Part shown: piece after piece, positions 5,801 to 54,880 of the stretch | How the letters are laid out: the number at the start of each line of letters is the position of its first letter | Numbering within the stretch: the first letter of the stretch is position 1 | IMG/VR virus record: IMGVR_UViG_3300032323_001970 | Span: 1 to 54,880 of that record | Source of the DNA: a virus | Length of the DNA: 54,880 bases | Direction: 5' to 3' (one strand) | Made by a program: the position numbers and the translations under genes | The notes under the pieces: model-generated | Database searches by the model: none | What the model saw: only the letters and a program-made list of their open reading frames with translations | What the model was told of the DNA's origin: nothing

Positions 5801-6090
5801 TGACCGATCAAGAATTTATTCAGCTACTGAATGACGTAGCTAAAAAAGCCAAGCCGTTTAACCGCGAGCTTAAACAAATTGACTCCATGGACATGGTCCT
5901 TAAGGAGACTGGCCTAGACAGCCTAGACATGCTGATGTGCACCGTCTATCTGTGCGAAATCTACAACGTAGAAGATGAAAAAAGCAAGGAAATGCAGGGC
6001 GAGACCCCGCAAGACCTGTTTAATTTCTTGAAGGAATGGGGGCGCAGACAGCCCACTGACCTGGCCCAGGCCAAGGAGTGGTTTGTATGA
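5800..6090 (+). CDS. Acyl carrier protein
   Basis: I chose the ATG overlapping the previous stop, giving 96 residues. It is acidic and helical, with the ACP signature: ETGLDSLDMLMCTVYLCEIY, in which Ser41 of the DSLD motif matches the serine that carries 4'-phosphopantetheine. Helix III and IV equivalents follow (TPQDLFNFLKEW). A 16-residue C-terminal extension goes beyond a usual 75-80-residue ACP. The next gene encodes a ketoacyl synthase and overlaps this one by 4 nt, so this is a carrier/condensing-enzyme pair. A phosphopantetheinyl transferase is not seen, so loading would rely on the host AcpS. Placement among tail genes is unusual. Confidence 0.82.
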   Translation: MTDQEFIQLLNDVAKKAKPFNRELKQIDSMDMVLKETGLDSLDMLMCTVYLCEIYNVEDEKSKEMQGETPQDLFNFLKEWGRRQPTDLAQAKEWFV

Positions 6091-7208
6091 GAATCTTCCT
6101 CACCGAAAGCCGCACTGCGTGCACTGAGGACACGATTCTCTTCGAGAACCATACTTTTCCCCAAAAAGTCCACCTGTTTCCAGAGACCTATAACCGGGTC
6201 AAGACAGGCCTGGTCAATCCGGCTCACCAAGTAGCCGAAAAAGTCTTAGATCCTGACCTTCTGAAGCGCCTTCGGGAGACCCAGACCGGCAAGACTGCCT
6301 TCCTCCTGGCCGCTGGAAACAGCAATTTTGCCAACGAAGGCTCCAAGCTCAACCGCGAGAATGAATGGACCTACAACTACAAGGTCCTTCCGCTGTCCCT
6401 GACCCAGATCTATGCCGGTCGGGTTGCCGCGCAGTGCGGAGAAATTGACCACACGGCTACGGATGCTACCGCCTGTACTTCTAGCCTCAAGGTCTTGATG
6501 GACGTCCAAACCCTCATCAAGTTCTACGGCTTCGACCGGGTCATCGTACTGGCCGTCGAGGACCAGGTGAACAACATGACCCTCCAGTTCTTTGGAGAAG
6601 CCAAGGCGACTTTGACAGAAAGCATGGCCGAGGCTCACCAGGTGAGCCCCAGTGCATTCGATTCCAAGAACTTTGGGTTTTATATAGGTCAAGGCGCCGT
6701 GTTGGCCGTATTTGAGTCAGAAGAAGCCGTAAGGCGCGGCACTTTTCCTGCTAGGGCAGAACTTGTGTCGGCCTGGACGGCAACCGAAGTGGCTACAAAT
6801 GCTATCGGTCAACGAGAAGACGGGCAAGGGTTTAGACGAGCCATCGAGGGCGCGCTGAAACTTTGTCAAGTTTCTTCAGAACAAATTAAAATCGTGAAAA
6901 CTCATGGCACCGGTACCCGGTCTAACAATGATGCCGAAAAGGCGGCTTTGGAAAGGTGCTTGAGTGGGTTTGTAGCGACATCGTATAAGCAACGAATCGG
7001 CCATACGATGGGAGCGAGCGGACTGTTAGAGACCCTCTTGCTGTTCAATGATTTAGAAAAGGGAACTGTCCCTGGGATCTTGAATCGGACTGAAGAGGAT
7101 CATGTGTTCCTCTCTGAAGCGGTTGAAGCACCTAAAGGGATGGTGTTAAGCTTGAGTGCTGGCATGGGCAACGTGTTCAGTGCTGCGCTTTTCAACATGA
7201 GGATCTAA
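6087..7208 (+). CDS. Beta-ketoacyl-ACP synthase (KAS/FabF-like)
   Basis: This 373-residue protein has a thiolase-fold condensing-enzyme layout. The nucleophile is Cys130 in TDATACTSSLK. His273 lies in KTHGTGTRSNNDAE. Lys301 and His306 lie in YKQRIGHTMGASGLLE, with the five-residue K-to-H spacing of FabF. GQGAVLAVFE (about 201-210) matches the GAG strand of the family. All Cys-His-His-Lys residues are kept, so it should be able to condense acyl thioesters. Differences are a short N-terminus compared with about 410 residues in FabF, and LSAGMGNVFSAALF in place of the usual GFGGTN gating loop, suggesting an altered acyl substrate. The ATG at 6087 overlaps the ACP stop with AAGGAG upstream; a GTG nine bases earlier is possible. 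The next gene encodes an unrecognised protein. Confidence 0.85.
   Translation: MRIFLTESRTACTEDTILFENHTFPQKVHLFPETYNRVKTGLVNPAHQVAEKVLDPDLLKRLRETQTGKTAFLLAAGNSNFANEGSKLNRENEWTYNYKVLPLSLTQIYAGRVAAQCGEIDHTATDATACTSSLKVLMDVQTLIKFYGFDRVIVLAVEDQVNNMTLQFFGEAKATLTESMAEAHQVSPSAFDSKNFGFYIGQGAVLAVFESEEAVRRGTFPARAELVSAWTATEVATNAIGQREDGQGFRRAIEGALKLCQVSSEQIKIVKTHGTGTRSNNDAEKAALERCLSGFVATSYKQRIGHTMGASGLLETLLLFNDLEKGTVPGILNRTEEDHVFLSEAVEAPKGMVLSLSAGMGNVFSAALFNMRI
6632..6648. repeat. 17-bp perfect palindrome inside the KS gene, shared with the 33.25-kb intergenic region
   Basis: GGCTCACC, a central A, then GGTGAGCC. Together with flanking bases, a 23-nt stretch (6631-6653) recurs at 33254-33276 with a single difference. 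The coding phase here reads AEAHQVSPS. The role is unknown; it could be an operator or processing hairpin. Confidence 0.6.
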
Positions 7209-18878: not shown

Positions 18879-19045
18879 ATCAAATTCCCTATAGATGAGT
18901 TTTTAGGCCAAAACAGAGTGTATCAGTACTCTCTGTTTTGTCTTCGCGGATCCTTATGCTATCGAGCGAACGATAGCTTCTAGAGTTCTTTTTTGTACCA
19001 GTACACTCTGTTTTGGCTCTAAAAACACTCTATAGGATTTTTGGC
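18879..19045. promoter_or_regulatory. Inverted-arm control element, copy A (upstream of early operon)
   Basis: Two 41-nt arms (18889-18929 and 18995-19035) are near-perfect inverted copies, differing at about four or five positions. Each arm runs from CTATAG at the outer end through GCCAAAACAGAGTGTA to an inner GTAYYRRTAC. Outside the CTATAG boxes the sequence reads GGRATTTTTGG or close to it in both directions, so the arms extend about 10 nt further. The 65-nt centre has a hairpin, GCTATCG-AGCGAA-CGATAGC (18958-18977), and an extra CTCTGTTTTG (18931-18940). The whole element recurs at 37143-37305. It could be an operator pair, a replication origin, or back-to-back promoters. Confidence 0.75.
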
Positions 19046-19088: not shown

Positions 19089-19117
19089 GCGCGCTGCGTG
19101 GTTTTCTGCGCTAGAAT
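19089..19117 (+). promoter_or_regulatory. Early promoter P1 (GCGCGC-N17-TAGAAT)
   Basis: GCGCGC (19089-19094) is followed after exactly 17 nt by TAGAAT (19112-19117). The block from about 19075 to the ATG at 19174, including ATGCACAGCA near the expected start point and the leader AGAAAGAAGAAAG, matches the region 33376-33474 closely. It drives the DUF932-to-helicase operon. The -35 position does not look like TTGACA. Confidence 0.7.
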
Positions 19118-19173: not shown

Positions 19174-20160
19174 ATGGCTCACGAAGTTGAAACGATGGCT
19201 TACGCCAATGAGACCCCTTGGCATGGCCTTGGCACCCCCGTCGCTGACAACCTGACCCCCGCCCAGATGCTTGATGCAGCTGGCCTCAACTGGAAAGTTC
19301 AAAAGAAGGCTCTGGTCGTTGACGACCTTGACCACGTCCTGACCAGCCACTACGCCCTGGTTCGCGACACGGACAGCAAGATCCTGGGCGTCTGCGGCAG
19401 CGAATACACGCCTACGCAAAACAGCGACGTCTTCGAGTTCTTCGAAAAGTTCTGCAAGGCCGGCGACATGAAGATGGAAACCGCCGGTTCCCTTTGCGAA
19501 GGCAAGCGCGTTTGGGGCCTTGCCAAGATCAACGGCGGCTTCATGCTGGGCGGCAAAGACGAAGTCGAGGGCTACATCCTCCTTGACAACCCCCACATCT
19601 GGGGCCGCAGCCTGCAGATCCTGTTCACCCCGATCCGCGTGGTTTGCAACAACACGCTGACGGCCGCTCTTCGGAACAATACGAACAAGGAAAACACTTT
19701 CCGCATGTCGCACGATCGCGCGTTTGACGACGAGATCAAGCAAACGGCAGCAGAAAAAGTCGGCCTTGCCATGAAGTCGCTAGACGTCTTCAAGCAGCAG
19801 GCCGAGTTCCTGTCCAAGAAGAAGGCCACGGACCAAAAGGTCATGGAGTTCTTCAGCAACTTGGTCAATCCCACCCAGTACCAAGCCGCTCTGGTCGATT
19901 CAGAAGCCGGCGAAGTCAACCGCGCAGATCTTGGCCGCACGGTCAACCGCCTGCTCGACATCGTGCACACCCAACCAGGAGCTGATCTGAAGACTTCAGC
20001 CGGAACCTGGTGGGGAGCATTCAACGCCGTGACGTACTACTACGACCACGTCGCCGGAACTGATCAGGACAAGCGTCTGACAAGCGCATGGTTTGGTTCA
20101 GCCGCCACCCGTAAGCGCCAAGCACTTGACCTCGCCGTCGAGTTCGCCGAAGCAGCCTAA
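19174..20160 (+). CDS. DUF932 / phage-plasmid-like protein (TIGR03299 type)
   Basis: This 328-residue protein opens with the family's usual beginning: MAYANETPWHGLGTPVADNL. Further family-like stretches are SHYALVRDTDSKILGVCGSE followed by YTPTQNSDVFEFFEKF, and ILFTPIRVVCNNTLTAAL. Members occur as early, highly expressed genes in many phages and plasmids. The biochemical role is not established; links to recombination or anti-restriction have been proposed. It is the first gene after promoter P1 and is followed by a UUCG hairpin, so it probably makes its own abundant transcript. SD-like AAAGAGAGAAA precedes the ATG. Confidence 0.88.
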   Translation: MAHEVETMAYANETPWHGLGTPVADNLTPAQMLDAAGLNWKVQKKALVVDDLDHVLTSHYALVRDTDSKILGVCGSEYTPTQNSDVFEFFEKFCKAGDMKMETAGSLCEGKRVWGLAKINGGFMLGGKDEVEGYILLDNPHIWGRSLQILFTPIRVVCNNTLTAALRNNTNKENTFRMSHDRAFDDEIKQTAAEKVGLAMKSLDVFKQQAEFLSKKKATDQKVMEFFSNLVNPTQYQAALVDSEAGEVNRADLGRTVNRLLDIVHTQPGADLKTSAGTWWGAFNAVTYYYDHVAGTDQDKRLTSAWFGSAATRKRQALDLAVEFAEAA

Positions 20161-20202: not shown

Positions 20203-21060
20203 ATGATGGCAAACGCCAGAGGAAAGACCATTGACAACACGCACCTGAGCATTGATCAGGCTGAAGAACGCGGCTTCATTCACCGCGACTACATCGCCCA
20301 CTGCCTTCGCTGGACGCACGTGGCTAAGTGGATGGGCAACCCCAAGAACCGCAAGGACTGCAACCTGCTCGACATCGGCTGCGGCAAAGATGTGCCGCTG
20401 GCCAAGATGCTGATGACCAGCCGCATGGCTTCCGATGGCCTGAACTACATCGGCATTGACTACAACAAGCTCGAAATGCCGAAGGCCTTCGAGAATACCA
20501 AGTTCAAGCCGACCCTGATTGGCAACGTGGCTTTTCCAGATTGCACGCTGCCCGTTGAGAAGTTCAATGTCATCACCTGTTTTGAGGTGCTTGAGCATGT
20601 CGAGCCATTGCATGCCTACAAGATGCTTGAAGGCATCAAGGCGCGCCTTGCAGACGATGGTGTGGCTTTCATCAGTACTCCTGTCTATGACGAAAAGGTT
20701 GGCGCAGCAGACAACCACGTCAACGAGATGAGCTACGGCGCCATGCAGCTGATGCTGCACAAGGTCGGCTTGGAAGTTGACGCCCACTACGGCACTTTTG
20801 CCTCAATCAAAGACTACAAGCAGATGGTCGAAAAGGAAGACATCGATGGAGTGTTCAATCGCCTGCGTGATTACTACGACAGCAACTACTTGGCAACTAT
20901 CTTTGCCCCGCTTTACCCGAGCCGCTCACGCAACGTGCTCTGGCGAGTCAAATTGCCGACTAGTCAAGAGATGTTTGCGCCCGCAAAGTTTGTCGACATC
21001 CCCCACCCGCTCTCAAGCAGCGACGCCTGGCAGCCACTCTTTGACTACCTTGGAGAGTGA
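20203..21060 (+). CDS. Class I SAM-dependent methyltransferase
   Basis: The protein has 285 residues. SAM-binding motif I is LLDIGCGKD (about 55-63). An acidic strand end follows (YIGIDYNK), then the UbiE-like motif NVITCFEVLEHVEP (post-II/III) and DDGVAFISTPVYDEK (motif IV region). No DPPY/NPPY motif or target-recognition domain is present, so it is unlikely to be a DNA adenine/cytosine methylase of the restriction type. A small molecule, nucleotide, RNA or protein substrate is more likely. Two ATGs occur (20203, 20206); the second has better spacing from AGGAGA. It lies in a nucleotide-metabolism block. Confidence 0.85.
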   Translation: MMANARGKTIDNTHLSIDQAEERGFIHRDYIAHCLRWTHVAKWMGNPKNRKDCNLLDIGCGKDVPLAKMLMTSRMASDGLNYIGIDYNKLEMPKAFENTKFKPTLIGNVAFPDCTLPVEKFNVITCFEVLEHVEPLHAYKMLEGIKARLADDGVAFISTPVYDEKVGAADNHVNEMSYGAMQLMLHKVGLEVDAHYGTFASIKDYKQMVEKEDIDGVFNRLRDYYDSNYLATIFAPLYPSRSRNVLWRVKLPTSQEMFAPAKFVDIPHPLSSSDAWQPLFDYLGE

Positions 21061-29308: not shown

Positions 29309-30800
29309 ACCCAAGATCATCCTGGGACCGCCCGGAACCGGCAAGACGACTACGTTGATGAACATCATCGAGTCGCTGCTGGAGAAGGGCGTTCGGCCTG
29401 AAGACATTGGCTTCATTAGCTTCACCAAGAAAGCTACAAATGAGGCTAGGGATAAGGCTCGTTCCCGGTTTGGTTTTGATGCAGATAGGCTTCCATTCTT
29501 CAGGACGATCCACAGCCTTGCGTTCAGGCAGCTGGGACTGAGTAGGCAGCAGGTCATGCAGCACAACCACTACCAAGAACTTTGCGATGAGCTGGGGGTT
29601 GAGATCACAGGGCGCCAAACTGGCGAAGACGGCACGTTGGTTGGTATGGCACAGGGTGACAAGCTGCGTTTTGTCGAAGGCATGGCAAGGATCCGGTGTG
29701 TGCCACTCAAGCAGCAGTGGGAAGAGTTAAATGACGACGATCTTGGCTGGTTTGAGCTGGAGCAGTTTGCAAAGGCTCTCAAGGAATACAAGGACAACTC
29801 TGGCCTGATCGACTACACTGACATGCTTGAGTTGATGCGGTCAGAAGGCTTCGTACCTAAATTAAAGGCTCTGCTGGTTGATGAGGCACAAGACCTATCA
29901 AAGCTGCAATGGTCCGTTGTTGAACGAATGATGGAGAAGGCAGATGAGACCTATATTGCTGGAGACGACGATCAGGCAATCTTTAGATGGGCTGGAGCAG
30001 ACGTTGATCACTTCATTGGCCTCGACGGGGACGTGCGTGTACTCGATCAGTCTTACCGGATCCCCTCCGTTGTTCACGATTTGTCCTTTGACATTATCAA
30101 AGCTGTATCTCGACGACGAGAAAAGCAATTCAAGCCAGCAGCCCATGAAGGATCTATCACCTACCACAACGACATCGAACACGTAGACATGGGCCAAGGA
30201 ACATGGCTCCTGCTTGCTAGGAATGTCTATATGCTCAGGGAAATGGTTGAGTTATGCCATCGTGAGGGCTACGCATACGAGTGTCAAGGAATGAGCCCTC
30301 GTAAGTCTGAGGCACTGCTGGCCATCAGGAGCTGGGAGAAGCTTCGCAAGGGCGACTTCATCCAAGCAGATCAACTGAAGCTGGTCTATGCTCACATGTC
30401 AAAGCGGATGGTCGATCACGGTCATCTGTCCTTGAAGACGTTGACAGAAGACATGGTCAACATGGACCTGCTGCAGCAGAAGTACGGGCTGCAGACCAAG
30501 GCCATCTGGCACACGGCTCTTGACCGCATCAGCGACGAGGAAAAGGAATACTTCCTTGCAGCCTTAAGACAAGGCGAATCGTTGTCAGGAGATCCACGGA
30601 TTACCATCAGCACGATCCACGGATCTAAAGGTGGTGAGGCTGACAACGTATTGCTGGTCACTGACATCAGTCCCAAGACCTACAACAGCTACCAAGAGAA
30701 TCAAGACGATGAGGTTCGCGTGTTTTACGTGGCAGCAACGCGGACCAAGAAGAACTTGCACATCATCACGCCGCGCACACAAAGGTACTTTGACTTATGA
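29292..30800 (+). CDS. Superfamily 1 (UvrD/Rep-like) DNA helicase
   Basis: The product is about 502 residues starting from a GTG inside the end of the primase gene; no ATG is available nearby. Motifs in order are Walker A LGPPGTGKTT (11-20), motif Ia GFISFTKKATNEARD, motif II LLVDEAQDLSKLQW (about 194-207), motif III AGDDDQAIFRWAGAD, motif IV LDQSYRIP, motif V STIHGSKGGEADNV and motif VI VAATRTKKNLHI. All catalytic motifs are intact. It unwinds DNA ahead of the fork or in recombination. It is shorter than E. coli UvrD (720), as is common for phage forms. Confidence 0.88.
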   Translation: MEASSKPKIILGPPGTGKTTTLMNIIESLLEKGVRPEDIGFISFTKKATNEARDKARSRFGFDADRLPFFRTIHSLAFRQLGLSRQQVMQHNHYQELCDELGVEITGRQTGEDGTLVGMAQGDKLRFVEGMARIRCVPLKQQWEELNDDDLGWFELEQFAKALKEYKDNSGLIDYTDMLELMRSEGFVPKLKALLVDEAQDLSKLQWSVVERMMEKADETYIAGDDDQAIFRWAGADVDHFIGLDGDVRVLDQSYRIPSVVHDLSFDIIKAVSRRREKQFKPAAHEGSITYHNDIEHVDMGQGTWLLLARNVYMLREMVELCHREGYAYECQGMSPRKSEALLAIRSWEKLRKGDFIQADQLKLVYAHMSKRMVDHGHLSLKTLTEDMVNMDLLQQKYGLQTKAIWHTALDRISDEEKEYFLAALRQGESLSGDPRITISTIHGSKGGEADNVLLVTDISPKTYNSYQENQDDEVRVFYVAATRTKKNLHIITPRTQRYFDL

Positions 30801-31432
30801 GCTTCCTAGTCGCAAACATCCCTCCCATAAAGTGCTTTGTTCGCAAAGAGTTTCTTTACAACCACGAATCCGGACATGGTGAGCTTGAGCCATGCGTGTG
30901 GATGACGGCCAAGGCCATCAAGGGCCAGGCATTCAGGATTGAATCCATGCTGACGAACTACGGAGCCTTGTATGACAAGCTCCCTATCAGCGCATACGTG
31001 TGGAAGCCGGTCGAAGAGCCGCTACCGCTTGACTTCCTGCAGATCTGGGATTGCTTGTCGTATGACATGGCAGTCATCGAGAAGTCAAACCTGCGGGGAC
31101 TCAAGGTCAAGTTCTTTGGCAAGGACAAGCAGTTCCATTTCGGCAACTACCTGTTCACCATTGACTTTGCAGCACCTGACACCAACCGCATCGACACCAG
31201 CTTCAGCGAAGGGGTTCAAGAGCATAAGAGCTACAACTTCATCCAGCTCGACAACGGCCAGTTCGCTTGCCAGCCCAACAACCGCTGCCTGTGGTACGAC
31301 GTGTCATTGGTCCCTGCAACCCTGAAGACCCCTGACTTCAAGATCCCGACCCAGGTCTACAGCGTCGAGAACCACGCCAAGTGGTCTGCCAAGGATGAGT
31401 GGTTCTACAGCTTCGAGGAGCTCAACAAGTGA
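30797..31432 (+). CDS. Unknown protein between the two helicases
   Basis: This 211-residue alpha/beta protein is rich in aromatic residues: PCVWMTAKAIKGQAFRIES, PISAYVWKPVEEPLPLDFLQ, FHFGNYLFTIDFAAPDTNRI, WYDVSLVPATLKTPDFKIPT. I do not recognise the family and see no catalytic signature. It overlaps helicase genes at both ends (ATGA and GTGA), so it is translated with them and may be a helicase partner. Confidence 0.78.
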   Translation: MSFLVANIPPIKCFVRKEFLYNHESGHGELEPCVWMTAKAIKGQAFRIESMLTNYGALYDKLPISAYVWKPVEEPLPLDFLQIWDCLSYDMAVIEKSNLRGLKVKFFGKDKQFHFGNYLFTIDFAAPDTNRIDTSFSEGVQEHKSYNFIQLDNGQFACQPNNRCLWYDVSLVPATLKTPDFKIPTQVYSVENHAKWSAKDEWFYSFEELNK

Positions 31433-36595: not shown

Positions 36596-36621
36596 AAGGG
36601 GGCCTCACAGCCCCCTTTTTT
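36596..36621. terminator. Strong Rho-independent terminator between converging units
   Basis: AAGGGGGC-CTCACA-GCCCCCTT is an 8-bp stem followed by TTTT. It stops the rightward accessory operon; its tail overlaps the stop codon of the leftward regulator gene, so it may serve both directions. Confidence 0.85.
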
Positions 36622-37060
36622 ATTCCTCGCGGTCGCGTACCTTGCAGCCAAGATCTACCGGATCCATCTTGAGGTAACTGAAGACGGCCTTACGACGTTG
36701 GTCTGACTTAGCCGTGCCGCAGTTGGGGCAGCCATGACCGCACACCGAGCAAAAAGCCGGTGGACTTTCAAAAGCGCGGATCACCCGACGCTTATGCTCC
36801 TCACGGCAATGCTCAAGCCACTTGGCCCTCCAGCCACGAATCGCGATCAGCTCATCGATCTTATCAATCACGTGCTGCGTGACCTTCCGGCCCTTGATGG
36901 CGTTAAAGAAGGTGCCGCGACTGAGGTCTAAGCCGTCCTCAGCTTCCTTGTCGTACAAGCGGCTGATGTTCGGCTGCCCGGTTCCATGCTCACTGGCCCA
37001 GACGATGATCTTGACGGTGTCGAGGTCAAGGGGAGATGTTGCTTCGATTGGTCGGCTCAT
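36620..37060 (-). CDS. Leftward putative DNA-binding regulator with a Cys4 motif
   Basis: The protein has 146 residues, starting MSRPIEATSPLDLDTVKIIV (ATG at 37060; AGAAAGAAG upstream, the same leader as in P1 and P2). Residues about 30-70 (NISRLYDKEAEDGLDLSRGT, then FFNAIKGRKVTQHVIDKIDE) look like a helix-turn-helix region. A basic patch follows (WLEHCREEHKRRVIR) and then Cys104-x2-Cys107-x3-Cys111-x2-Cys114, likely a zinc site. Divergent placement next to inverted-arm element B suggests it controls that element and perhaps its twin at 18.9 kb. The assignment as regulator is an inference. Confidence 0.68.
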   Translation of the reverse strand: MSRPIEATSPLDLDTVKIIVWASEHGTGQPNISRLYDKEAEDGLDLSRGTFFNAIKGRKVTQHVIDKIDELIAIRGWRAKWLEHCREEHKRRVIRAFESPPAFCSVCGHGCPNCGTAKSDQRRKAVFSYLKMDPVDLGCKVRDREE

Positions 37061-37093: not shown

Positions 37094-37099
37094 ATTATA
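37094..37099 (-). promoter_or_regulatory. Possible -10 box of the regulator gene
   Basis: TATAAT on the minus strand, 34 nt upstream of the regulator's ATG. There is no clear -35 at 17 nt, so an activator or the neighbouring element B may be needed. Confidence 0.4.
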
Positions 37100-37142: not shown

Positions 37143-37305
37143 ACCAAAAAAGCTATAGATGATTTTTAGAGCCAAAACAGAGTGTATTGATACAACCTTT
37201 TTGCAGACGCGAGATTTAGAGACGAGCGAACGATAGTAGAAATAGTTTTTAATTGTATTGATACACTCTGTTATGGTCTAGAAATCATACTATAGGGAAT
37301 TTGGG
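37143..37305. promoter_or_regulatory. Inverted-arm control element, copy B (upstream of terminase)
   Basis: Arms 37153-37193 and 37255-37295 are imperfect inverted copies with CTATAG at the outer ends, AACAGAGTGTAT inside and TGTATTGATACA at both inner ends (37183-37194 and 37254-37265). The centre contains CGAGCGAACGATAG, identical to the 14-mer at 18963-18976 in copy A. Outside the right arm CTATAGGGAATTTG matches the outward reading of the left arm of copy A. It lies between the leftward regulator and the packaging operon. Confidence 0.75.
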
Positions 37306-37371: not shown

Positions 37372-37698
37372 ATGCCATTCCAAAAAGGTGTGAAGCCGGA
37401 AGGCTCTGGGCGCAAAAAAGGTAGCCAGAACAAGCGCAACATTCAACGGCAAGAGATCTTTGACCGGATCGTCGAGAAGCATGGTGACCCACTCGAGGCA
37501 CTGGCTGAGATGGCCTTTGACCCGAACCACGACCTGCTGGTCCGCAAAGACTGCCTCAAGGAGCTGGTGCAGTATGGCCACGCCAAGAAGAAGTCGGTCG
37601 AGATTACCGGACCTGATGGCGGTCCCATCGAGGCGCGGCTCGAGCTGGTCGGCCAGATCACCGACCTCATCGGCAAGCTGAACGCTGGCGGCAAATGA
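37372..37698 (+). CDS. terS: Terminase small subunit
   Basis: This 108-residue protein opens MPFQKGVKPEGSGRKKGSQN, a basic AT-hook-like stretch common in phage small terminases. Helices follow (RQEIFDRIVEKHGDPLEALA, DLLVRKDCLKELVQYGHAKK). The gene overlaps the large-subunit gene by 4 nt, the usual pairing. It would recognise the packaging start site on concatemeric DNA. The packaging type cannot be decided here. Confidence 0.78.
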   Translation: MPFQKGVKPEGSGRKKGSQNKRNIQRQEIFDRIVEKHGDPLEALAEMAFDPNHDLLVRKDCLKELVQYGHAKKKSVEITGPDGGPIEARLELVGQITDLIGKLNAGGK

Positions 37699-42170: not shown

Positions 42171-42590
42171 ATGCTACTTGAAACCCCCATGTCCTTCAGC
42201 TATGCCTCATTGGACGAGGCCTTCCCAGCAGTCGATTGCGGCCATGAACCCCTGGGTTCCCGCGTGATTGTTCAAGTCCGCAAAGCCAAGAATCAAACGG
42301 CAGGCGGCATCTTTATCCCGGAAGAAGCGCGAAAGACGGAAGCCAGCAATACCCAGATCGCCAAAGTCGTGGCCATCGGTTCATTGGCTTACAAGAATCG
42401 GAACACCATGGAACCCTGGCCAGAAGGCTCCTGGTGCGAAGTTGGTGCCTACGTCCGTGCACCTAAATACGGCGGTGATCGTTGGACCGTGAGGTCTGGC
42501 GATGAGGAGGTCGAATTTGTGATGTTCAATGACTTAGACATTCTTGCCAAGGTCACTGGAGATCCCACTGCGATCCGTGCGTTTATCTAA
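42171..42590 (+). CDS. GroES-like co-chaperonin
   Basis: This 139-residue protein has a Cpn10 fold pattern: PLGSRVIVQVRKAKNQTAGG (27-46), whose TAGGIFIP (43-50) matches the mobile loop that docks on GroEL. Next come IAKVVAIGSLAY, EVGAYVRAPKYGGDRWTV and MFNDLDILAKV. It has an N-terminal addition of about 25 residues and insertions compared with the 97-residue host GroES. Phage co-chaperonins such as T4 gp31 replace GroES so that GroEL can fold the capsid protein. The location among head genes, upstream of scaffold and capsid protein, fits that role. Confidence 0.85.
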   Translation: MLLETPMSFSYASLDEAFPAVDCGHEPLGSRVIVQVRKAKNQTAGGIFIPEEARKTEASNTQIAKVVAIGSLAYKNRNTMEPWPEGSWCEVGAYVRAPKYGGDRWTVRSGDEEVEFVMFNDLDILAKVTGDPTAIRAFI

Positions 42591-52956: not shown

Positions 52957-54880
52957 CCACTATCCTGATTAAGAAAAAGGACACTGCAGGGGCTCCTGCT
53001 GCGGGCGACTTGACTAATGCAGCCGGCGGTACTGAAATCGCAGTCAACACGGCTACAAAGCGTATCTATACCAAGGACGCCGGCGGCAACGTTGTTGAGC
53101 TGGGCACCAACGCCTCTGCTTCAACGATTGACCAGCTGACCGTTACCACGTCGGCCACCTTGTCTTACGGAACCTCCACTCAGGTTCAGTTCCTCAACGG
53201 CTCCAAGGTCCTGACTGGTTCGGCCAACCTGACTTTTGACGGGACAAACCTGACCTTGGGCGGCGGCACCGCCAACGGCGTGGCCTACCTCAACGGCAGC
53301 AAGGTGCTGACCACGGGGTCTGCGCTGACGTTTGATGGGACGAATTTGGGGGTTGGTACCGCAAGTCCAATCTCTAATTCTTATCTTGATGTTGTTTCTG
53401 GCGCGGCAACTTATCCAAGAGTTAGAAGCACTGCCGCAACTGCGGCTGGCACTTATTACCAAAACAGTGCAAGCGGCACAACCAATACTGATGGCCTTTT
53501 TGTTGGGATTGATGGCTCTCTAAATGGTTATTTCTACAACTATGAAAATGCGCCTCTGATTTTCGGAGTAAACAACGCCGAACAAATGCGCCTGACCAGC
53601 ACAGGGCTGGGCATTGGGACGAGTTCGCCAATAAGCAAACTGCAAAGCGCATCCGCAGTTTCTGCCCTGACCAGCAACGCTGGTTTTAGCTCACTGCCGC
53701 TAACGGTAACTGACACCACAGCTTTGGCGGCGAATACGGGCGGCGGCATTAACTTCAATGCGGTAATCACGGCTGGCGGGGCTTACAACTCAATTGCTGC
53801 GATTAAAGCTGGGCGCAATGTTGCCACAGCGTCTGATTTCAATGGGTATCTGTCTTTCTATACTGGAAGCAACAGCACCGGATACCCTGTTGAGCGCATG
53901 CGCCTTGACTCCTCAGGCAACCTCGGCTTGGGGGTGACGCCGAGTGCGTGGGGTAATGAGTTTGCGGCGATCCAGCTTGGGTTCTCCGGGGCTATTGCCA
54001 GCTACAAGGCAGGCACTGCCTCAGAGTTCAACAACTACCTGAGCAACGCCTACAACGACAACACCAACTGGCGTTACATCCGAGACGGCGCGGCTACTCG
54101 TTATCAGCAAACAGAGTCAGCGCATCAATGGTTCACTTCTGCCTCCGGCACAGCAGGCAACGCCATCACCTTCACGCAGGCCATGACGTTGGATGCGAGT
54201 GGGAATTTGGGGTTGAGCATTACCAGCCCTACGGCAAAGCTGCACATCTACGAGCCGACAGCAGCAGCGACACGTATTCGTGTTCTGGCAAACGGTGGGC
54301 AGCAAGCTGCATTGCAGTTGGCAGGCAACGGCACCACGTTTGGCTCTACCAGCTTTGATGTGTTCCAAGACGGGGGCAGTGATGCCTACGTTGCAAACCG
54401 TGCCAATGCCTCGCTGCAATTCTGGACTAACAACACCGAACGCGCCCGCATCGACTCCTCAGGCAACCTTGGCCTAGGGGTTGCGCCGAGTGCTTGGAGA
54501 AGCACTGACAGGGTGTTGCAAGTAAACCGTGTTTCGTTGTACGACGAGAACGGCAACTCGATGTACTTGGGCCACAACTTCTTTGAGAACTCCAGCGGCC
54601 AGTACATATACCTGAACACTGACTTTGCCAGCTATTACCAGCAAATCGACAGTCAGCACCGCTGGTACACCGCACCTTCTGGCACAGCAGGCAACGTTAT
54701 CACTTTCACCCAAGCGATGACGCTGCTTCAGAACGGCAACCTTGGCATTGGGGTGACTTCGCCTGCTGCTCTATTGCACCTTTCATCGGGTTCTGGAACC
54801 AAAGCAATTTGGGGAACGACTCGTAACTTTACGGTCAATCGGAACTGGCAGGTGGCAGTTGATGAATATGCCGAGGGGCA
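52953..54880 (+). CDS. Tail fibre, distal (partial, runs off the right edge)
   Basis: The frame stays open for 642 codons to the edge. An N-terminal attachment part ([20 protein letters not shown]) and FDGTNL-type repeats are followed by recurring modules with the line [18 protein letters not shown]: at about 53586, 53898, 54183, 54443 and 54718. A second unit, [20 protein letters not shown], recurs as [20 protein letters not shown]. Such SGNLGLG repeats are typical of fibres that end in an S74 chaperone domain. The likely end of that domain is at bases 1-135. This would be the receptor-contact part. Confidence 0.82.

What the first reader, a model, noticed from the sequence alone, without database searches (positions are those of the whole stretch)
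18879..19045. Duplicated long inverted-arm element, copy A
Arms of 41 nt or more face each other around a hairpin-bearing centre. Such size and symmetry are not explained by a simple promoter. Outward-reading ends (CTATAGGGAATTTG and CTATAGGATTTTTGG) look like transcription start regions in both directions, and inner GTAYYRRTAC palindromes look like operators. It lies at the boundary between the late and early regions.
Basis: seen in the sequence. Interest (0 to 1): 0.78.

Follow-up and report, generated by a model that had tools for sequence, protein, structure and literature searches.

The report
Twin phage control sites (origin-like)
An uncultured freshwater phage family carries the same ~165-bp symmetric DNA control site at the start of its early genes and at the start of its late genes, with a small phage DNA-binding-type protein encoded beside one copy that evolves in step with both copies; it looks like a paired replication-origin/operator system, which has not been tested in the laboratory.

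Summary
Element A (18881-19043) has two ~49-nt inverted arms with invariant CTATAG near their outer ends, a GTAYYRRTAC palindrome in each arm, and an off-centre core CGAGCGAACGA followed by an AT-rich stretch. Copy B lies at 37145-37303. All 22 close relatives checked have A, and complete relatives carry exactly two copies, at the same early/late boundaries. The symmetry is not a selected hairpin: arms pair with the other element's arms in the same genome as well as with their own. That points to a protein acting in trans. A previously unremarked leftward gene beside B (36620-37060, minus; 146 aa, probable HTH plus CxxC...CxxC zinc motif) is the best candidate. Gene and element occur together or not at all in 56 of 57 loci, and A's arms, 18 kb away, track this protein better than any of 37 other phage proteins tested. 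No T7-like polymerase was found; sigma70-like -10 boxes lie outside the arms. The elements are the AT-richest 60- and 120-nt windows of the genome. Best reading: a twin origin-plus-operator site working like SPP1 oriL/oriR. Operator-only is nearly as likely. Transcript starts and origin activity are untested.

The parts
18881..19043 (.). Element A, whole (arms + centre), between the late module (virion gene ending 18865) and the early module
   Evidence: present in all 22 close relatives at the same place
18881..18929 (-). Left arm of A (reads outward on minus): CTATAG at 18889-18894, palindrome GTATCAGTAC at 18920-18929
18995..19043 (+). Right arm of A: palindrome GTACCAGTAC at 18995-19004, CTATAG at 19030-19035
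18963..18973 (+). Core CGAGCGAACGA, the best-conserved part; gives the element a direction
18974..18994 (.). AT-rich spacer between core and right arm, near-constant length, variable sequence
19112..19117 (+). Conserved -10-like TAGAAT of the early operon, outside the arm; no clear -35
   Evidence: consensus match only
19174..20160 (+). First gene of the early module (DUF932 protein)
37145..37303 (.). Element B, whole, between a leftward operon and the terminase (late) operon
37145..37193 (-). Left arm of B: CTATAG 37153-37158, palindrome GTATTGATAC 37184-37193
37255..37303 (+). Right arm of B: palindrome GTATTGATAC 37255-37264, CTATAG 37290-37295
37223..37233 (+). Core CGAGCGAACGA of B
37234..37254 (.). 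AT-rich spacer of B; this stretch holds the AT-richest 22- and 60-nt windows of the genome
37312..37341 (+). Late-operon promoter-like site TGTACG-N18-TAGAAT (relatives mostly TTTACG-N18-TAMAAT)
   Evidence: consensus match only
37094..37099 (-). -10 (TATAAT) of the leftward operon, outside the left arm of B
   Evidence: consensus match only
36620..37060 (-). Leftward gene, 146 aa, probable HTH N-terminus + CxxC-x3-CxxC zinc motif; candidate arm-binding protein; followed by a terminator-like hairpin
37372..37698 (+). Small terminase-like gene, first gene of the late operon

Best explanation
A and B are two copies of one compound DNA-binding site. The four inverted arms are sites for a phage protein acting in trans, most likely the 146-aa HTH/zinc protein encoded in the leftward operon that starts at B. 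The core (CGARCGAACGA) next to a near-constant-length, easily melted AT-rich stretch is the working centre, read by a second, more conserved factor. Most likely the pair are the phage's replication origins doubling as operators. The protein binds the arms, the AT-rich segment opens and the phage primase/helicases load, and the same binding controls the flanking promoters (early operon at A; late operon and its own operon at B). Shown by sequence: the two conserved copies, the arm symmetry without hairpin selection, linkage and co-variation with the protein gene, and the AT-rich centre. Inferred: binding itself, which factor reads the core, origin activity, and the direction of regulation.
For: Exactly two copies per complete relative genome, always at the two module boundaries. 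Arms of one element pair no better with each other than with the other element's arms in the same genome (own -49.0, cross -52.2 kcal/mol), as expected of four copies of a protein site and not of a hairpin. The HTH/zinc gene and the element co-occur: 46 loci with both, 10 with neither, 0 with the gene only, 1 with the element only (that contig, L111, stops inside the leftward operon). A's arms, 18 kb from the gene, correlate best with this protein among 38 phage proteins; the partial correlation controlling for the adjacent DUF932 protein is 0.60, p 0.0005 (n=10) and 0.47, p 0.005 (n=11). B's orientation changes 5 times on the TerL tree but only twice on the protein's own tree, so element and gene travel together. 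Core-to-right-arm distance is near-constant (mostly 68 nt) while the left side varies. The 22-nt stretch after the core is 79% AT (genome 46%), and the two elements are the AT-richest 60- and 120-nt windows in the genome. Orientation does not matter at B, and A's left arm has no promoter to serve.
Against: No direct evidence of replication start or of protein binding. GC-skew turning points lie 0-5 kb past A and about 1-5 kb past B, or elsewhere, and may only reflect module composition. The protein matches no curated HTH or initiator family; the HTH reading rests on the sequence pattern and weak hits to a phage 'transcriptional repressor' family. The co-variation test uses 10-11 related genomes and the margin over the next gene is modest (0.65 vs 0.58). 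No known origin has this core, to my knowledge.
Confidence: 0.45

Rival explanations
1. Operator/enhancer only. The HTH/zinc protein binds the arms at A and B and switches the early operon, the late operon and its own operon, somewhat like lambda OL/OR or pLS20 Rco operators. There is no origin function; the AT-rich centre is ordinary regulatory DNA.
For: At B the element lies between divergent conserved -10 boxes (leftward TATAAT, rightward TAMAAT with TTTACG at -35), and at A it lies upstream of a conserved TAGAAT; several have weak -35s, as activator-dependent promoters do. The regulator gene adjoins B. pLS20 precedent: HTH regulator, divergent promoters, two operators (PMC4207663).
Against: Does not explain the core, which is more conserved than the arms, the near-constant AT-rich spacer, A's left arm, or the free orientation of the centre. 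Arm-to-arm spacing shows no helical phasing (resultant 0.09), against a short rigid loop.
Confidence: 0.35
2. Back-to-back promoters of a T7-like phage RNA polymerase starting at CTATAG.
For: CTATAGGG resembles the T7 promoter initiation region and is invariant at all four arm ends of the window.
Against: No single-subunit RNA polymerase found: PF00940 search of the record empty (its control genomes did not ring either), and no Pfam match to one in any protein of 600 aa or more that was scanned. Half of the predicted transcripts would be antisense. Sigma70-like -10 boxes lie further out.
Confidence: 0.06
3. The arms act as one long hairpin (RNA terminator/processing site, or DNA cruciform).
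For: Very stable predicted folds; own-partner pairing beats partners taken from other genomes.
Against: That advantage disappears against the other element of the same genome, so it reflects a shared protein site or common ancestry. No intrinsic terminator was found by the scan. The small central stem shows no consistent covariation.
Confidence: 0.06
4. A MITE-like or invertible mobile element.
For: Terminal inverted repeats with fixed ends (CAAAA...TTTTG); two copies per genome; the element at B is found in both orientations.
Against: Position is fixed in every relative, never elsewhere, never more than two copies; no transposase or recombinase was identified among the genes scanned; orientation follows the linked gene's clade.
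Confidence: 0.04

Closest known systems
Bacillus phage SPP1 oriL/oriR with origin-binding protein gp38 (PMC6316719, PMC3485210)
   Same: Two origins of similar organisation per genome, ~12-13 kb apart (here ~18 kb); each with repeats plus an AT-rich unwinding element; one phage protein binds both; one origin lies in or by that protein's gene; oriR lies in a long intergenic region.
   Different: Repeats in SPP1 are direct, here mainly inverted arms; no gp38 or DnaB-type helicase homolog seen here (this phage has an AEP primase, UvrD-like and SNF2 helicases and PolA); no experimental proof here.
pLS20 Rco switch (PMC4207663) and lambda OL/OR
   Same: HTH-type regulator encoded beside divergent promoters, with paired distant operators.
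   Different: Rco operators are separated by 75 bp with required phasing; here there is no phasing and the two elements are 18 kb apart; no integrase or lysogeny gene was noticed.
P2 Ogr/Delta zinc activators (from memory)
   Same: Small zinc protein; sites upstream of promoters with weak -35.
   Different: No match to the Ogr_Delta family; Ogr has no separate HTH domain.
Phage DSL-LC04 (OR003939) intergenic long inverted repeat
   Same: CTATAG-ended inverted arms with an ACACTCTCT motif, 215 bp, in a long non-coding gap; related AEP primase.
   Different: Arm motif in the opposite sense, no shared core, single copy seen; analogous at most.

Membership tests
SPP1-type paired phage origins | Two similarly organised sites per genome | tested here: met
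SPP1-type paired phage origins | AT-rich unwinding-type segment beside repeats | tested here: met
   composition and spacing only
SPP1-type paired phage origins | One phage origin-binding protein binds both | tested here: inconclusive
   linkage and co-variation support it; binding not testable
SPP1-type paired phage origins | Replication initiates there | not testable with these tools
   no reads or cultures; GC skew inconclusive
SPP1-type paired phage origins | gp38/gp39/gp40 homologs | not tested
   no specific search run; none surfaced among the gene hits seen
T7-like phage promoter | Genome encodes a single-subunit RNA polymerase | tested here: not met
   (one search's control genomes did not ring, so it is weak on its own)
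Intrinsic terminator / functional hairpin | Own-arm pairing maintained beyond that with the other element | tested here: not met
   terminator scan empty
Mobile element (MITE) | Variable insertion sites between relatives | tested here: not met
Classical HTH_3 repressor-operator system | Regulator matches the HTH_3 family | tested here: not met
   (PF01381 no match); weak PHROG 'transcriptional repressor' hits in 18 of 38 members, best E 4.5e-4
Ogr/Delta late activators | Matches Ogr_Delta | tested here: not met

The most novel reading that the evidence does not exclude
A new class of phage replication origin: paired, orientation-independent sites (inverted arms + ACGA-repeat core + AT-rich segment) opened by a new family of HTH/zinc initiators that also controls early/late transcription, in phages using an AEP (TOTE-type) primase and no DnaB-type helicase that was seen.
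Probability: 0.3. Interest if true: 0.75.

Novelty: new variant of a known kind. Interest (0 to 1): 0.55.

Why it matters
It gives a concrete, testable candidate for where replication starts and how the early/late switch is controlled in an uncultured freshwater phage family with an AEP primase, whose origins are, as far as I know, uncharacterised. It also names the candidate binding protein, missed because it lies on the minority strand. The within-genome cross-pairing test is a simple general way to tell protein-bound inverted repeats from real hairpins.

Tried and rejected
Hairpin/cruciform/RNA structure: strong folds, but rejected by the cross-element test; a first identity-based version had two misplaced arms and its repair failed, so it was replaced by the energy test. 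Central stem: no consistent covariation. T7-like promoters: no polymerase. Rfam: nothing. GC skew: turning points near but not at the elements, inconclusive. Collection-wide pattern scan: 78 stretches, not followed up one by one; many are probably chance. Distant relative G017, RLK and MW202545: no comparable inverted repeat in the stretches scanned. Search for the HTH/zinc protein in bacterial genomes and named phages: none. PDB profile search: only insignificant hits.

Full report
The element. Element A (18881-19043) and copy B (37145-37303) share one plan: CAAAA-N3-CTATAG at the left end, an arm of about 49 nt ending in the palindrome GTAYYRRTAC, a centre holding CGAGCGAACGA, an AT-rich stretch, then the same arm inverted, ending CTATAG-N3-TTTTG. 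The inverted repeat is the strongest of its kind in the window (32/42; next unrelated 27; one shuffled control at most 25). CTATAG occurs nowhere else in the window, and the core is found only in the two elements.

Conservation. Profile searches find A upstream of the DUF932 gene in all 22 close relatives (82-96% DUF932 identity) and B upstream of the terminase genes in about 50 loci. In the complete or near-complete relatives there are exactly two copies, always at the two module boundaries. CTATAG and the core are the most constant parts. The core-to-right-arm distance is nearly constant (mostly 68 nt) whereas the left side varies; the total spacing shows no 10.5-bp phasing. More distant DUF932 relatives (under about 51%) lack A in the sequences read.

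Not a hairpin. The element folds very stably on paper, and own-arm pairing beats arms from other genomes. But when each arm is paired with the arms of the OTHER element of the same genome, pairing is as good or better (own -49.0, cross -52.2 kcal/mol over 10 genomes). The four arms are therefore four copies of one sequence-specific site, which points to a protein acting in trans.

A candidate protein. A conservation scan of all frames exposed a minus-strand gene beside B (36620-37060). It encodes 146 aa with an HTH-like stretch (LSRGTFFNAxKGRxVTxxVIDKIDELI) and an invariant CxxC-x3-CxxC motif. It has its own TATAAT -10 and a terminator-like hairpin after the stop. It matches no curated family; weak matches are to a phage transcriptional repressor and DksA-like zinc fingers. 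Among 57 terminase loci with enough upstream sequence, 46 have both element and gene, 10 have neither, none has the gene alone, and the one with the element alone stops inside the leftward operon. In some genomes other genes precede it in the leftward operon.

Co-variation. A is 18 kb from this gene, so linkage alone should not make them match. Among 38 phage proteins, this one tracks A's arm sequence best (rank correlation 0.65; next 0.58; DUF932 beside A 0.33; TerL beside B 0.22). Controlling for DUF932 the partial correlation is 0.60, p 0.0005, or 0.47, p 0.005 with an eleventh genome; the reverse partial is about 0.1. A's centre shows little such relation. The sample is small and related, so this is support, not proof. 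B exists in both orientations; orientation changes five times on the TerL tree but only twice on the protein's tree, so element and gene move as a cassette. All members with the reversed B, other than the two distant ones, carry G/S in place of S/N around the presumed recognition helix.

Origin or operator. For an origin: a repeated core beside an AT-rich stretch of near-constant length (79% AT against 46% for the genome), the two elements being the AT-richest 60- and 120-nt windows of the genome, indifference to orientation, and an A-left arm that faces no promoter. SPP1 is a close working parallel: two origins of similar organisation with repeats and an AT-rich unwinding element, bound by one phage protein, with the late origin proposed to stall forks (PMC6316719, PMC3485210). 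For an operator: conserved sigma70-like -10 boxes lie just outside three of the four arms and the candidate regulator adjoins B, as in pLS20 (PMC4207663). The two are compatible, since initiators often regulate their own genes. GC skew turns near A and B in several genomes but not exactly there and decides nothing. I put origin-plus-operator at 0.45 and operator-only at 0.35.

Limits. No binding, transcript or replication data exist for this phage here. Promoter assignments are consensus reading plus conservation; the scan tool itself reported no rightward promoter at A or B above its threshold.

Noticed in passing
window 36620-37060 (-): Conserved minority-strand gene (HTH-like + zinc motif) hidden in a genome otherwise read on the plus strand; became part of the explanation.
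   Followed up: yes
OR003939 (DSL-LC04) 20556-20770, L276:8557-8771: Long inverted repeat with CTATAG ends and ACACTCTCT in a ~640-bp non-coding gap; a possible analogous control site in a phage with a related AEP primase.
   Followed up: partly
window 6078-7208 (+): Protein with beta-ketoacyl synthase domains inside the structural/tail module, also annotated at a similar position in MW202545; odd place for a lipid-synthesis enzyme fold.
   Followed up: no
window 30797-31432 (+): PHROG 'ferredoxin' gene with patchy distribution: 95-97% identical in G014 and G015, 60-63% in G002 and G017, no match in the other relatives scanned, suggesting recent exchange.
   Followed up: no
window 42171-42590 (+): GroES-like co-chaperonin in the capsid gene cluster.
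   Followed up: no
L245-L247 (G009, 57746 bases): Record ends share a 123-base direct repeat, consistent with a circular or circularly permuted genome map in this family.
   Followed up: no
window 53892-54767: Degenerate direct repeats of 33-91 nt, 273-546 nt apart, near the window's end, probably a repetitive tail-fibre gene.
   Followed up: no
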